Part shown: positions 44,174 through 51,851 of the stretch, piece after piece | Position numbering within the stretch: the stretch's first letter is position 1 | Layout: every line of letters starts with the position of its first letter | Assembly (NCBI RefSeq): GCF_001293565.1 | Contig: NZ_JXMU01000018.1 | Coordinates: forward strand, 29,330-93,329 | Length of the DNA stretch: 64,000 nucleotides | DNA from: Ahrensia marina | GTDB taxonomy: Bacteria; Pseudomonadota; Alphaproteobacteria; Rhizobiales; Rhizobiaceae | Direction of reading: 5' to 3' | Program-made: the position numbers and the translations under genes | The notes under the pieces: model-generated | Seen by the model: the letters and a program-made list of their open reading frames with translations, nothing else | The model's database searches: none | What the model was told of the DNA's origin: nothing

Positions 44174-44395
44174 TTAGCGATATCCTTTCCTACGCTTCCT
44201 CTCAACAATGATGCGGGCCTTTGCAAGCGCGGCATCGAGAGTTTCAAACCAGTCTGTCCTTGTTTGGCCTGTTGTGCCACGGCGACCCCAGTGACGCTCG
44301 ACACCAAATTGACCAAATAGCCCAGGAACTGTTTCTATCGAATAATATCGGTCCATATTCCTCTCGCTGTCTGTCCTCCTCAAAAAAAAGCGCAT
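44174..44395 (-). CDS. Single WGR-domain protein
   Basis: A 73-residue protein that is almost only a WGR domain: RYYSIETVPGLFGQFGVERHWGRRGT, with the Trp-Gly-Arg core, and a basic tail (ERKRRKGYR). WGR domains bind nucleic acids, as in PARPs and MolR. It lies 9 bases after the DUF6527 stop and is probably the last gene of the ubiquitin-like operon. A paralogue lies at 55335-55577. Confidence 0.85.
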   Translation of the reverse strand: MRFFLRRTDSERNMDRYYSIETVPGLFGQFGVERHWGRRGTTGQTRTDWFETLDAALAKARIIVERKRRKGYR

Positions 44396-44404
44396 GACCT
44401 CTTC

Positions 44405-44788
44405 CTAAGACCTCAGCGTATTGTCTTTTCTTTTTTGAGGCTTCGGGCGTCCGCCCCTGCACCATTGAACCTGGCCCTTCTTCACCCAAAAATGGCATCC
44501 GCATTCGTTTTGCTGGTGCACAGATGGGTGTAGTGTGGGCCTTTTCCAGAAGTCGGTGACGACGCGCCAACGAGGCCGGTGATCAGGATTGACAGATAGT
44601 GAAATTCTCTCCCCACACCCGCCAGGACAGGTCAAGCATGCCCATTTTTTTATACTACCGCTCTGGACCAGAATCAGTTTTTCCCGGCCGGTCTCAGACT
44701 GCTGAGGAAAGCTATCCTGCTGGCTAGCCAGGTAGTCGTATCGCAGCACTCCTAACCATCGGAGCATGCTCGCTAAAGACTTTTTCAT
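44405..44788 (-). CDS. DUF6527 zinc-site protein of ubiquitin-like operons
   Basis: A 127-residue protein with two Cys/His knuckles: CLTCPGGCGE near residue 51 and ECGCHFWVKKGQVQWC near 95-110. This is the DUF6527 pattern, which co-occurs with bacterial E1/E2/JAB genes in so-called Bub operons. How it works here is not shown by the sequence; a regulatory or peptidase role has been discussed for the family. It follows the E1 stop by one base. Confidence 0.85.
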   Translation of the reverse strand: MKKSLASMLRWLGVLRYDYLASQQDSFPQQSETGREKLILVQSGSIKKWACLTCPGGCGERISLSVNPDHRPRWRVVTDFWKRPTLHPSVHQQNECGCHFWVKKGQVQWCRGGRPKPQKRKDNTLRS

Positions 44789-44789
44789 T

Positions 44790-50100: not shown

Positions 50101-50502
50101 GAGGTCCATCAGAACTTCTTGGCGGCCCTTGTGGCTGTAGTCCAAAAGTCGCTCTGCACCGGTCGCTGCCGGGTCGGCTGAGCGTGCCGGATCGATTCCC
50201 ATCGCTGGAGTGGCGTCACCAGCACTACCGAATTCGTCGTGGCCAATTTCATGGGCGATCAAAAACGCATTGAGAAAGTCGCTGCCGGTTTCTTCGTGGC
50301 GGATAGCGTGTGCATCAGCATCAAAAAGCGCCTGTCCACCCTCAAGTTGCGCATGGCCCTTTGAATATGTGCGAACTTCGATGTCACGTCTCTTGGCCTC
50401 CCGTAGAATGAACTCGAGCGGATTGGCTGGATCGCCACCCTTTGCGACAAGATTATCATGCAGTTCGGTGGCTTTCTGCCTAGCAAGCTCAATCTGATCC
50501 AT
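47116..50502 (-). CDS. ImmA/IrrE peptidase - UvrD helicase - PD-(D/E)XK-like fusion
   Basis: A 1128-residue three-part protein. (1) A zinc peptidase of the ImmA/IrrE kind, residues about 20-175: AHEIGHDEF near 84-92 and RQEVLMDLFARELLFP near 127-142. (2) A UvrD/Rep SF1 helicase: GPGTGKTQT near 217, VDEYQDV near 430, IHGSKGLEF and FVALSRAED. (3) A Cas4/AddB-like C-terminus with an iron-sulfur Cys set (YEKCPRRF plus CPRCPYFFIC). The usual DYKTG nuclease motif appears as RRIRTGR, without the Asp and Lys. The start at 50502 overlaps the regulator stop by 14 bases; a longer frame to 50544 is possible. Confidence 0.92.
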   Translation of the reverse strand: MDQIELARQKATELHDNLVAKGGDPANPLEFILREAKRRDIEVRTYSKGHAQLEGGQALFDADAHAIRHEETGSDFLNAFLIAHEIGHDEFGSAGDATPAMGIDPARSADPAATGAERLLDYSHKGRQEVLMDLFARELLFPRTMARKWYLDEALTAKQISERLGAPYDMVAVQLFDALLLPQIEVTPQKKSKPKQLNPEQKKAATHDGGALLLRAGPGTGKTQTLIGRLEHLRDKGVDPASILVLTFSNKAAGELSDRALDLWPEAAGAIWIGTFHSFGLDIVRRFHDRLDISVEPTPLDPTAAIALLENEFVRLDLQHFKELYDPTDQLKDILSAISRAKDEVVNAPRYKEFADAMRASAVADEDIETAERCQEIAQVYEVYETLKKNGDFVDFGDLVALPTALVETDQQACSLLQDRYTHILVDEYQDVNRASVRLLRALKPDGKGLWAVGDAKQSIYRFRGASSFNMQRFLEEDFPSGSIMNLVTNYRSFQEICDGFVEFANAEMLAAEANVQAVAHRGSSSTKPGFVAVEGKHDEIDEIAARTNAAVGSGIPFKEQAVLCKANDRLADVAAGLESRGIPVLYLGPLFDRPEIKEALSFLSLLTDPRAMGLSCVATIPEFEMLIDDLSVCAERLATGDKPDPLEWKTRLSNSTNLTPNGQGALQSIINALNGLSERSTPWRAFASIYLDNTNLVRGLFKQAQDGISLPAIALWQFQNFLRSVRVDGEGYPVTLILDHIRRLVILSDERDLRDLPTAAQSLNAVRLMTIHGSKGLEFKMVHLPSLTSRSMPSASRQTSPAPPDGMIDGPIHSGKGAVRAGHDEEQECLFFVALSRAEDELVMYSYNNRSKFIDRIAHKLDFPGQLAVTQENATNEKTVGVAFETPLTITPSQLALYEKCPRRFLYAHVLKLGGRRTESAFMKMHGAVQKTIDDLVNPENSIGSEAELEVLYKRHWEARGPTDHGYASDYERAGRQLLTYLFKLRQGETPRSPADFALNLGHAQIVVRPDECTIDSDGKLIMRRIRTGRQTKKSTDTLDAAAYQLAVEPTGDFEFVFLSSEERGSVSMGTTKLNNRRRQIEEATQAIRTGSFPASPKQPARTCPRCPYFFICTDAPSGELSKKTLN

Positions 50503-51055
50503 CTGACACTGACAGTCTTTTGAGAGCTTCCCGCTCAGCTTCATTCAAGCCAAGCCCTTGTACGAAGTCATCGTATTCAAGCTCGGAAGAGCCCTGTGGT
50601 TTGCCATCTGCCTTATACGACATCTGTGTCCCAATCCCAGGCGGGGCGTGGAAATAGGCGATCAGTTGATGAACGGAGACGCTGGCCGATTTAGCAAGAT
50701 TTGTGAGCAAGGTGCCTGGGATTGATCCAAGTCGGAATTTTCTATCTCTGAACCCAGCAATGTAGTCGCGGGGTAACTCCAGTTTCTCAGCCAAACTCCT
50801 TAGATTTCCGCCAGAGAGAGCGTTTGCAACTAACACAGCGTCTTGCTGTGCTGGCTGTATTGCTGACTTTGTCTCAAGCTGTATTCCATCTGTGGCCGCC
50901 GACAGATCAACCAATAACAGCTCGTGGTACAAATCTGTCAATTCCACAGCGAACATCGGATACTTTTGAATATAGTTTCTCAGGGTTTCTGGTGCGAGCT
51001 GCTCCTCCATGGCGAAGTCGTCCAATATCGCTTCGCGATTTAATTCAGTGGGCAT
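50489..51055 (-). CDS. HTH regulator between the sigma-like and peptidase-helicase genes
   Basis: A 188-residue protein with no family I can name. A helical N-terminus (about 5-70) is followed by an XRE-like HTH (NLRSLAEKLELPRDYIAGFR, about 84-103, then LGSIPGTLLTNLAKSASV) and an acidic tail with GLGLNEAEREALKRLSV. It overlaps the sigma-like gene by 11 bases and the peptidase-helicase by 14, so all three are translated together. ImmA and IrrE cleave HTH repressors (ImmR, DdrO). By analogy this is the likely substrate; that is inference. Confidence 0.75.
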   Translation of the reverse strand: MPTELNREAILDDFAMEEQLAPETLRNYIQKYPMFAVELTDLYHELLLVDLSAATDGIQLETKSAIQPAQQDAVLVANALSGGNLRSLAEKLELPRDYIAGFRDRKFRLGSIPGTLLTNLAKSASVSVHQLIAYFHAPPGIGTQMSYKADGKPQGSSELEYDDFVQGLGLNEAEREALKRLSVSDGSD

Positions 51056-51851
51056 CTTTCACCTCCGTCCCCAAAATTGCCTGCAGCTTCTTTACTGCCC
51101 TGTTCCGGCGGTTTCGGACTGTCTGTGGTTCGCATTGAAGGATCGTCGAGATTGTTTGAACCTCGGGGTCGTTACTTTCGCTTGGAATTCCTGCAAAGAT
51201 CATAGTGATAACCCGCCTTTCATCATCTGGAAGGGAGCCAATCGCGCGCTGTAGCTGAAACCGGTAAGTGATTTCGTCTTCAAAGCTGTTTTTTTCCGGA
51301 TTCAGCTCCACAAGACCCTTCTCGACATCAGCAGGAATATCTCCATCTGCATCATATTCGAGCGGCTCGGTGGGCTTGTCCCGACGGTACATTTTTCTTA
51401 GTGCGTCGTCTTTTCGACGGGCAATCATGTGGTCGAATGCAACCTCGAAGCCGTCAAGTTTCTCTTCATATGTTTGCCGGTCGCACATAACGCGCTCCGC
51501 GAAGTCATCAAGCACGAATTCTTGCAAGTCCAGCAAGTTTGCATTCGCTCCGTCTTTATCACCGATTCGGAATTCAGACCGAGGGCAGACTCTCTTTATA
51601 CGCTTTTGTAAAATGTTGTAGAGCCTGCCAAATTGAGCATCGTGATTGTGTGTCTTCGTCTGTCTGAGGAAATATACCAGCGCCTCAGAAGGGATATAGT
51701 CAGGATTTTTTCTGGCGCTGATCTCGGCACGATCGCAAAGCTCATCAAATGTTAGTTCGAGACACTCGAGAATTACGACTTCTGTCGCGGCTCTGCGCTC
51801 ATACAATTTCCCTTCGACAGTTTTCTTCCGGAGTGGTGGCAGGTTGCTCAT
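51045..51851 (-). CDS. Sigma-70-like regulator
   Basis: A 268-residue protein. The C-terminus is a sigma region 4-type HTH: QRAIGSLPDDERRVITMIFAG, then VQTISTILQCEPQTVRNRRNRAVKKL. A central helical region (about 90-160, ERVMCDRQTYEEKLDGFEVAF) may stand for region 2, but the -10-recognition sequence is not clear. It is the first gene of the minus-strand run to the ubiquitin-like genes. Its most likely role is to switch that operon on when a neighbouring inhibitor is removed. Confidence 0.78.
   Translation of the reverse strand: MSNLPPLRKKTVEGKLYERRAATEVVILECLELTFDELCDRAEISARKNPDYIPSEALVYFLRQTKTHNHDAQFGRLYNILQKRIKRVCPRSEFRIGDKDGANANLLDLQEFVLDDFAERVMCDRQTYEEKLDGFEVAFDHMIARRKDDALRKMYRRDKPTEPLEYDADGDIPADVEKGLVELNPEKNSFEDEITYRFQLQRAIGSLPDDERRVITMIFAGIPSESNDPEVQTISTILQCEPQTVRNRRNRAVKKLQAILGTEVKDAH

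What the first reader, a model, noticed from the sequence alone, without database searches (positions are those of the whole stretch)
44174..51851. Seven-gene operon joining a sigma/HTH/peptidase-helicase switch to a ubiquitin-like conjugation module
Seen: seven genes on one strand, five of the six junctions overlapping or within 9 bases, the sixth 89 bases (47027-47115) without a clear terminator. Order: sigma-like factor, HTH regulator, ImmA/IrrE-UvrD-nuclease-like fusion, Ubl-Ubl-E2 fusion, JAB-E1 fusion, DUF6527, WGR. Known: ImmA/IrrE peptidases cut HTH repressors on stress; JAB, E1, E2 and DUF6527 make bacterial ubiquitin-like (Bub/Bil-type) defence operons. Inference: DNA damage or phage DNA sensed by the helicase-peptidase releases the sigma-like factor, which then turns on tagging of phage or host proteins. 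I do not know this combination as a described system.
Basis: partly seen in the sequence, partly recalled or inferred. Interest (0 to 1): 0.93.

Follow-up and report, generated by a model that had tools for sequence, protein, structure and literature searches.

The report
DNA-damage switch for bacterial ubiquitin-like tagging
On a likely plasmid of an alphaproteobacterium, three genes for a predicted sigma factor, a predicted DNA-binding protein and a predicted protease-helicase stand directly before genes predicted to attach ubiquitin-like tags to proteins; the same arrangement, with two promoter-like DNA sites at fixed places, recurs in several phyla and before two different tagging systems, and it likely switches tagging on when DNA is damaged or a phage invades.

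Summary
In detail: seven same-strand genes at the stated coordinates with the stated domains. It is not a chance neighbourhood. Of 89 loci with the peptidase-helicase, all have the sigma-like and HTH genes before it and 81 a Bub-type ubiquitin-like module after it; in 397 genomes of the order, all 13 assessable copies run into Bub (7) or the different, PADLOC-modelled Bil system (6). The sigma-like protein has a predicted sigma-factor fold. A bipartite element (TTACCGG...CGATT, rigid spacing) stands twice in most Bub loci: before the Ubl gene and inside the sigma gene, where synonymous codons are held fixed. Its exact form is absent from 18 Bub loci lacking the three genes; most Bil-branch loci have matched variants before the sigma and Ubl genes. 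Best reading: a dedicated sigma factor and its promoters, guarded by an HTH protein that the peptidase, predicted to sense single-stranded DNA, cleaves. The nuclease-like domain has lost catalytic residues. Sensing, cleavage and phage defence are untested. HTH-peptidase control of Bub is known; helicase fusion, sigma factor, promoter pair and Bub-Bil sharing were not found in the held literature, but the main Bub papers were unavailable.

The parts
51045..51851 (-). SIG: 268 aa sigma-70-family protein (ECF-like; region 4 clear, region 2 by fold only)
51240..51267 (-). P1: promoter-like element TTACCGG-16-CGATT inside the SIG gene, 184 bases before the HTH start
   Evidence: synonymous-codon shuffle test 41 of 55 genes observed against mean 2.55, maximum 8 in 500 shuffles
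50489..51055 (-). HTH: 188 aa protein, helical N-terminal part, XRE-type HTH (residues about 70-140), conserved Lys148 and Pro153 in a low-confidence linker
47116..50544 (-). PEPHEL: M78 (ImmA/IrrE-type) zinc peptidase + UvrD/Rep SF1 helicase + PD-(D/E)XK-fold domain with Fe-S-type cysteines and lost catalytic residues
   Evidence: HExxH 83 of 83, Walker A AGPGTGKT 83 of 83, Cys 916 83 of 83, Cys 1119/1122/1128 82 of 83; position 1040 never D or E in 83 rows
47087..47114 (-). P2: promoter-like element TTACCGG-16-CGATT in the PEPHEL-Ubl gap, 60 bases before the Ubl start
47024..47091 (-). predicted leader hairpin downstream of P2; its 3' arm covers the Shine-Dalgarno region of the Ubl gene
   Evidence: window z -3.95; 30 of 35 leaders with z below -2 against 2 of 33 control starts; Shine-Dalgarno window at least half paired in 31 of 35 against 21 of 33 controls, a weaker contrast; consensus folding of the alignment found no pairs
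46175..47026 (-). BubA-BubB-type fusion: two Multi_ubiq Ubl domains + E2-fold domain with invariant QRWSRH
   Evidence: Citrobacter BubB 9eae/9eav E 5e-11
44790..46178 (-). BubCD-type protein: JAB (JAMM) peptidase + E1 (ThiF)
   Evidence: Citrobacter BubCD 9ea4 E 6.7e-22; JAMM residues H99 H101 S109 D112 invariant in 27 rows
44405..44788 (-). DUF6527, predicted Zn-binding protein
   Evidence: C54 C58 C96 H99 invariant in 41 of 41 rows; found in 78 of 89 loci
44174..44395 (-). WGR protein; local, not a regular member
   Evidence: 5 of 89 loci, in none of them in the window's position

Best explanation
Three genes conserved in front of bacterial ubiquitin-like (Bub and Bil) operons (sigma-like SIG, HTH protein, peptidase-helicase PEPHEL) likely form a DNA-damage- or phage-triggered switch in which the predicted sigma factor would start transcription at two promoter-like elements, one inside its own gene and one directly before the Ubl gene. 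At rest the HTH protein is inferred to block SIG or its promoters. PEPHEL is inferred to load on single-stranded or damaged DNA through its SF1 helicase and its catalytically lost PD-(D/E)XK domain, and its M78 peptidase then cleaves the HTH protein, as CapP cleaves CapH and PprI cleaves DdrO. Freed SIG would fire P1 (HTH and PEPHEL, a feedback loop) and P2 (Ubl-E2, JAB-E1, DUF6527). The leader hairpin after P2 may set a translational brake. The Ubl is then probably cut from the E2 part by JAB, adenylated by E1 and passed through the E2-fold domain, whose invariant serine (QRWSRH) replaces the usual cysteine, to target proteins. Shown here: gene content, conservation, correlated distances, elements, predicted fold, motif integrity. 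Inferred: regulation, cleavage, trigger, conjugation, targets.
For: Linkage: 80 loci found with the peptidase domain only and 9 with the HTH protein; SIG and HTH in 89 of 89, Ubl in 81, DUF6527 in 78 (four of the 89 are second copies of a contig); of the 8 without Bub five are contig ends, two have a broken PEPHEL frame, one (L024) is Bil. Sample of 397 genomes of the order: 15 with a peptidase-domain match; one is a 185 aa M78 protein without helicase, one a contig end; the other 13 are followed by Bub (7, the window included) or Bil (6). Distances of PEPHEL correlate with SIG 0.954, HTH 0.961, Ubl 0.880, E1 0.801, DUF6527 0.760, no permutation of 2000 reaching them, 41 non-redundant loci of 72 complete ones. 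Predicted sigma fold. Elements: 70 of 76 gaps hold the pair, spacing 17 in 69 and 16 in 1, allowed range 12-24; 37 of 3800 random windows at 15-19; exact TACCG-N17-CGATT: 66 in the gap, 65 in SIG, 2 elsewhere in 76 loci; non-redundant: both copies in 30 of 42, gap only 3, SIG only 4, none 5; 0 exact hits in 18 Bub loci without the three genes, 8 hits in 5 of 7 with them (two of the seven are L030 and L033 again; 3 of the other five); among nine further loci both copies in 6, a cyanobacterial plasmid included. Synonymous codons. Bil-branch loci: own variants before SIG and before the Ubl gene. Known mechanism of peptidase plus ssDNA: PMC13373217 and PMC10904395; protease-released sigma factor in immunity: CASP-sigma, PMC10028731.
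Against: No RNA, protein or phage data. Foldseek E for SIG is only 0.0063 and for HTH above 1. The HTH fold does not tell repressor from anti-sigma factor. The distance correlations do not correct for host kinship, and the nearest neighbour of PEPHEL is also that of SIG in 21, of Ubl in 19 and of E1 in 19 of 41 loci only. In Bub loci no exact element lies within 400 bases before SIG, so SIG autoactivation is not predicted there. The exact element is missing in 5 of 42 non-redundant loci and in L172, L181, L204 and L212. A looser pattern is not specific: 16 hits in the 18 Bub loci without the three genes, 15 in the 7 with them. In the Bil branch L214 shows none and L209 only the gap copy. 18 of 25 Multi_ubiq loci lack the three genes (one is a 3.4 kb contig) and must be controlled otherwise; one complete bilABCD contig has none in 3 kb upstream. 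Bub has, per PMC13373217, not been shown to protect against phage.
Confidence: 0.62

Rival explanations
1. Plain CapH-CapP-like derepression: the HTH protein is the only regulator, the bipartite element is its operator or an ordinary promoter it covers, and SIG is an accessory DNA-binding protein.
For: CapH+CapP upstream of Bub is already described; the HTH domain resembles CapH, ImmR and DdrO, though no more than other XRE domains; an inverted repeat follows P2.
Against: The element is asymmetric, has a rigid 17-base spacer and one orientation, and differs between the Bub and Bil branches as SIG does; SIG is present in every Bub locus and has a predicted sigma fold.
Confidence: 0.22
2. PEPHEL is itself the defence machine or the substrate: a helicase-peptidase that attacks or marks phage DNA complexes, and the Ubl system tags PEPHEL or its DNA-bound partners, without a transcription switch.
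For: Intact helicase and peptidase motifs in 83 of 83 rows; near-obligate coupling to Ubl enzymes rather than to many kinds of defence operon; AddA/AddB-like helicase-nucleases downstream in a subset.
Against: The nuclease site is lost; M78 peptidases with HTH partners are known as regulators; the promoter-like elements and the sigma gene have no role in this reading.
Confidence: 0.1
3. Loose neighbours: independent regulatory and tagging modules that meet in defence islands and plasmids.
For: The locus sits among repABC and conjugation genes beside AbiE; 18 of 25 Multi_ubiq loci lack the three genes.
Against: 13 of 13 assessable copies in the order sample carry Bub or Bil; distance correlations 0.76-0.96; shared element.
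Confidence: 0.03

Closest known systems
CapH + CapP (HTH repressor and ssDNA-activated M78 peptidase) beside CBASS, Bub and other operons
   Same: HTH protein plus M78 peptidase directly upstream of a Bub operon; predicted cleavage switch. PMC13373217 reports 219 of 544 Bub operons with CapW or CapH+CapP (section 7 read)
   Different: Here the peptidase is fused to a UvrD helicase and an inactive PD-(D/E)XK domain, a sigma factor is added, and every assessable copy in the order sample stands before a Ubl system. The word helicase does not occur in that paper's main text
PprI (IrrE) / DdrO of Deinococcus
   Same: M78 peptidase that senses ssDNA and cleaves a repressor (PMC10904395, abstract and passages)
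   Different: No helicase fusion, sigma factor or Ubl operon
CASP-sigma / Csx30 of type III-E CRISPR
   Same: A protease cleaves an inhibitor and frees an ECF-like sigma factor whose motifs lie in its own immunity locus (PMC10028731, passages)
   Different: RNA-guided caspase-like protease; no M78 peptidase, helicase or Ubl system
Bub pathway (system 6e of Iyer et al. 2006; Citrobacter BubB, BubCD structures)
   Same: Ubl repeats, E2-fold domain, JAB-E1 fusion, metal-binding protein (PMC1779556 passages; PDB matches)
   Different: The main text of the 2006 paper has no 'helicase' and no 'sigma'
Bil (BilABCD)
   Same: In six order-sample loci and L024 the same three genes stand before bilABCD, and three plasmid records have a like order
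   Different: The window's own module is Bub, not Bil

Membership tests
Bub operon | tandem Ubl (Multi_ubiq) protein | tested here: met
   Pfam 3.1e-25; PDB multi-ubiquitin proteins E 3e-31
Bub operon | BubB-like E2 domain | tested here: met
   Citrobacter BubB 9eae E 5e-11, QRWSRH shared
Bub operon | BubCD-like JAB-E1 fusion | tested here: met
   Citrobacter BubCD E 6.7e-22 over residues 40-408
Bub operon | conjugation through serine oxyester intermediates (recalled; of Ye et al. 2026 I saw only the title in a reference list) | not testable with these tools
   E2 cysteine not conserved, Ser254 invariant in 24 rows is consistent
CapH+CapP regulator | M78 peptidase with HExxH next to an HTH protein upstream of an immune-type operon | tested here: met
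CapH+CapP regulator | two-gene regulator with a stand-alone peptidase (definition recalled) | tested here: not met
   peptidase fused to UvrD and PDDEXK_1, third gene SIG; so filed as works like CapHP, not as a member
CapH+CapP regulator | ssDNA-stimulated cleavage of the HTH protein | not testable with these tools
   no biochemistry
sigma-70 family | region 4 HTH | tested here: met
sigma-70 family | region 2 (-10 and core binding) | tested here: inconclusive
   no Pfam region 2 hit; whole-sigma alignments cover about 43-262 with large rmsd from domain placement
sigma-70 family | own promoter class | tested here: inconclusive
   conserved bipartite element; binding not shown
PD-(D/E)XK nuclease (RecB/Cas4/AddB type) | catalytic Asp and Lys of the D-x-K motif | tested here: not met
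   position 1040: R67 C5 T4 H3 K3 M1 of 83; position 1042: K in 11 of 83; motif assigned by eye
PD-(D/E)XK nuclease (RecB/Cas4/AddB type) | four cysteines of the Fe-S staple | tested here: met
   Cys 916 83 of 83; 1119, 1122, 1128 82 of 83; that they bind Fe-S is recalled for the family
Bil | BilA-D models | tested here: not met
   no BilA-D match for the window's proteins; met in divergent loci for proteins of L205 and L024, E 5.6e-61 to 1.4e-175

The most novel reading that the evidence does not exclude
A self-contained sigma regulon for bacterial ubiquitin-like immunity: a helicase-fused peptidase with a decommissioned nuclease reads phage or broken DNA, destroys the HTH guard, and frees a private sigma factor that fires one promoter hidden in its own coding sequence and one before the Ubl gene, whose leader hairpin adds a second gate; the same cassette has been swapped between the distinct Bub and Bil systems.
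Probability: 0.45. Interest if true: 0.93.

Novelty: new variant of a known kind. Interest (0 to 1): 0.87.

Why it matters
Bub pathways are widespread but, per PMC13373217, not shown to protect against phage. A switch shared with Bil, which that paper lists among known anti-phage pathways, argues that Bub answers the same kind of threat and gives a trigger to test. The predicted promoters make the regulon directly testable with reporters. A sigma factor released by an M78 peptidase fused to a helicase would be a new way to couple DNA damage to protein tagging, and a promoter kept inside a coding sequence across phyla is unusual in itself.

Tried and rejected
WGR as a system component: rejected, 5 of 89 loci, none in the window's position. 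PEPHEL as a nuclease: rejected on residues. A terminator in the gap: none found. Viral carriers: viral contigs gave 284 pattern matches but no relative. Consensus RNA folding of the leaders on the MAFFT alignment A7 gave zero pairs, I think because loop lengths differ; single folds with shuffles were used instead, so compensatory change is seen by eye only, not measured. Rfam: no match. PDB search with the peptidase domain profile: none; with DUF6527: nothing significant; with the BilD-like protein: nothing significant. A large regulon in the window's genome: the loose pattern gave 16 hits against 12 for the reversed control, so no sign of one; the strict pattern gave 3, of which only P1 and P2 have the 17-base spacing. 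An element before SIG in Bub loci: none within 400 bases. The HTH2 profile had one row in a wrong frame (L208) and is not used for any claim. The motif was first seen in the loci, so the counts are on the data that suggested it; the 12-24 spacing range was left open, and searches used loci that mostly had no part in that. Of the BilD matches, L231 is a complete bilABCD without the three genes in 3 kb upstream, L232 and L233 are fragments; the three matches near 1e-14 were not looked at. Literature searches for a prior description: (one search was for CASP-sigma); the main papers on Bub and Bil (PMC12145246, PMC12885553, PMC11476048) are not held, so prior mention in them cannot be excluded.
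Full report
What is there. Seven genes lie on the - strand at the given coordinates. Pfam and PDB comparisons give: SIG (sigma-70 region 4), an HTH gene without a Pfam match, PEPHEL (M78 peptidase, UvrD helicase, PD-(D/E)XK domain), Ubl-Ubl-E2, JAB-E1, DUF6527 and WGR. Junctions are -11, -56, 89, -4, 1 and 9 bases. The nearest solved relatives of the tagging genes are multi-ubiquitin proteins, Citrobacter BubB and Citrobacter BubCD, so the module is Bub, system 6e of Iyer et al. 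2006 (PMC1779556, passages), with BubA and BubB fused. The window has repABC genes (35948-39719), an integrase-like gene, a VirC1-like gene, a relaxase and a TraG-like coupling protein, so it is probably a conjugative plasmid.

Conservation of the neighbourhood. I searched the genome-contig collection with the peptidase domain alone (alignment A4): 286 relatives, best 80 kept. With the nine loci found by the HTH protein this makes 89 loci, four of them second copies of the same contig. SIG and HTH lie directly upstream in all 89 (HTH by selection in nine), a Multi_ubiq gene downstream in 81, DUF6527 in 78. Of the eight without Bub, five end with the contig, two have a broken PEPHEL frame and one (L024) carries Bil. 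Profiles were iterated on the loci themselves, but scores are high and order is constant. Record titles cover Alpha-, Beta- and Gammaproteobacteria, Myxococcus, Verrucomicrobia, Planctomycetes, Acidobacteria and one archaeal bin; a cyanobacterial plasmid has it too. Plasmid records: 88 of 72,556 match the peptidase domain.

A second tagging system behind the same three genes. To avoid a sample picked for close likeness I searched 397 genomes of the order: 15 have a match. G1352 is a short M78 protein without helicase and G1360 ends with its contig. The other 13 all continue into a ubiquitin-like system: Bub in seven (the window, L200-L204, L212) and, in six (L205, L207-L211), a different set. 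PADLOC, run on three proteins of L205 and one of L024, names these BilA, BilB, BilC and BilD; the other loci matched them by profile. HTH is matched in all thirteen. SIG scores are low in L208 and L211 (19 and 21 bits), and in L209 and L210 it is found only by a profile built from the divergent copies, which in turn matches ordinary SIG at 3.6e-9. Of four plasmid records looked at in the divergent branch, three (L214, L215, L217) carry bilABCD after PEPHEL and one (L216) only a weak bilA-like frame. In these the first gene is annotated LuxR-type, sigma-like or hypothetical; my SIG profiles match it only weakly in L216 and in L214, where an IS256 element splits it.

The reverse direction. Of 25 Multi_ubiq loci outside the window's genome (12 and 15 matching genomes in samples of 385 and 398, the window's genome counted in both), 7 have the three genes; 18 do not, one of these being a 3.4 kb contig. 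BilD matched in 12 of 397 genomes; of the 8 with E below 1e-50, 6 have the three genes, one (L231) has bilABCD without them in 3 kb upstream and one is a fragment. So the three genes imply a Ubl system, but not the reverse. PMC13373217 (abstract, section 7 and passages read) reports CapW or CapH+CapP at 219 of 544 Bub operons and CapK+CapS at 59.

Correlated distances. In 41 non-redundant of 72 complete loci PEPHEL distances correlate with those of SIG (0.954), HTH (0.961), Ubl (0.880), E1 (0.801) and DUF6527 (0.760); no permutation of 2000 reached them. The nearest neighbour agrees in only 21 (SIG), 19 (Ubl) and 19 (E1) of 41, and host kinship is not corrected for.

PEPHEL. In 82 full-length relatives plus the window, HExxH, the later Glu143, Walker A and the DEYQD/DEFQD motif are kept. 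The PD-(D/E)XK part keeps the four cysteines of an Fe-S staple but not the D-x-K pair: position 1040 is never D or E, position 1042 is Lys in 11 of 83. I assigned the motif by eye, with a helicase-nuclease from L105 whose motif is intact as a guide. So this is most likely a DNA-holding, not a DNA-cutting, domain.

Two promoter-like elements. In the PEPHEL-Ubl gap most loci share TTACCGG and CGATT. With a spacing of 12-24 allowed, 70 of 76 have the pair (TACCG or TTCCG with CGATT, AGATT or CGATG) and the spacing is 17 in 69 and 16 in one; 37 of 3800 random windows have it with 15-19. The exact form TACCG-N17-CGATT occurs in 76 loci 66 times in the gap, 65 times inside SIG, and twice elsewhere. 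For 42 non-redundant loci: both copies 30, gap only 3, SIG only 4, none 5, elsewhere 2. In the window they are P2 (47087-47114) and P1 (51240-51267); 100 shuffles of the window gave 0.01 hits on average. Inside SIG the element lies on codons for Y-R-....-A-I. Shuffling synonymous codons within each gene leaves it in 2.55 of 55 genes on average, at most 8 in 500 rounds, against 41 observed; the base before TAC is T in at least 49 of 55 although the amino acid there varies. This points to selection on DNA, not only on protein. Of 18 Bub loci without the three genes none has the exact element in 323 kb; of 7 with them 5 have it, two of the seven being L030 and L033 again, so 3 of 5 new ones; the looser pattern does not separate the groups well (16 hits in 18 loci, 15 in 7). 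Of nine further loci 6 have both copies (L182, L183, L184, L200, L201, L202), L203 one, L204 and L212 none. Bil-branch loci have their own forms, for example TTCCGGG/CGATC and TTCCGAT/CGACT, most with a matched copy at SIG and one before the Ubl gene: L024, L205, L207, L211, L215, L216, L217 by pattern, L210 by a looser pattern and L208 by eye; L209 shows only the gap copy and L214 none; a few scattered further hits occur. Location, orientation, rigid spacing and change along with the SIG branch fit a sigma factor and its promoters. In the window's genome I saw no wider regulon.

Leader hairpin. Between P2 and the Ubl start most loci can fold a long hairpin whose 3' arm covers the Shine-Dalgarno region: 30 of 35 leaders have z below -2 (median -3.8) against 2 of 33 stretches before HTH starts. 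The Shine-Dalgarno window itself is at least half paired in 31 of 35 against 21 of 33, a weaker contrast. The alignment-based consensus found no pairs, so compensatory change is not measured. A DNA-level role (operator) is possible.

Mechanism. Known: M78 peptidases PprI and CapP are activated by ssDNA and cleave repressors (PMC10904395 abstract and passages; PMC13373217). Known: in type III-E CRISPR a protease cleaves Csx30 and frees CASP-sigma, with motifs in its own locus (PMC10028731 passages). Inferred here: PEPHEL senses DNA, cuts the HTH protein, SIG acts at P1 and P2, Ubl tags are made. Not decided: whether the HTH protein is an anti-sigma factor, a repressor or both, and what is tagged. 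The E2 domain lacks a conserved cysteine but has an invariant serine in QRWSRH, which fits the serine chemistry that I recall for Bub; that paper was not available.

Comparison and novelty. It works like CapH+CapP and like CASP-sigma, but is a member of neither: the peptidase is fused to a helicase and a third gene encodes a predicted sigma factor. Its output is a member of Bub by the features tested. I file it as a new variant of a known kind. I found no description of the helicase-fused peptidase, the sigma factor, the promoter pair or the Bub-Bil sharing in the held library (listings, with passages of five papers read), with the limit that the main Bub and Bil papers are not held.

Noticed in passing
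window 52095-53713: AbiEi/AbiEii-type pair divergent from SIG; a Roseovarius plasmid (L182) has the same order with AbiE, the six genes, CoiA, ScpB and DUF1403.
   Followed up: partly
window 35948-39719, 40350-41522, 57783-63104: repABC replication genes, an integrase-like gene, VirC1, relaxase and TraG-like genes: the window is probably a conjugative plasmid.
   Followed up: partly
L105:1823-8205, L106:3835-9827, L045, L047, L053, L058, L060: AddB-like gene after the Ubl module in a subset, followed where looked at (L105, L106) by a UvrD-PDDEXK (AddA-like) gene, and after Bil in L024/L106; a possible effector or repair partner.
   Followed up: partly
L065:16340-19444: 1034 aa caspase (C14) - DEAD helicase fusion shortly after DUF6527.
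   Followed up: no
L064-L071, L074: loci in Bradyrhizobium, Sphingomonas and Xanthobacter records that look nearly identical by scores, coordinates and gap sequence, suggesting recent transfer; PEPHEL frame broken in L071.
   Followed up: no
L049, L050, L089: PEPHEL frames broken; Ubl genes not found in L049 and L050 but present in L089.
   Followed up: no
L214:4699-6769: sigma-like gene of a Sphingorhabdus Bil-branch locus lies in two pieces either side of an IS256 transposase gene.
   Followed up: no
L076:3625-8449: a second, different Ubl/E1/DUF6527 set a few kb upstream of the one behind the three genes.
   Followed up: no
L087: the locus in a contig filed under a Methanoregulaceae archaeon bin; binning error not excluded.
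   Followed up: no
L017-type loci: second Bub architecture: three Ubl domains, E1 with DUF6791 and no JAB match, DUF6527.
   Followed up: partly
NZ_CP135153.1 (L183) and other Acinetobacter plasmids: 45 of the 88 plasmid records with the peptidase domain are Acinetobacter; in L183 SIG is annotated as a sigma-70 family factor.
   Followed up: no
window 43242-44099 and 53710-54345: an HNH-like protein below the Pfam cut-off and a protein without an NCBIfam match beside the operon and AbiE.
   Followed up: no
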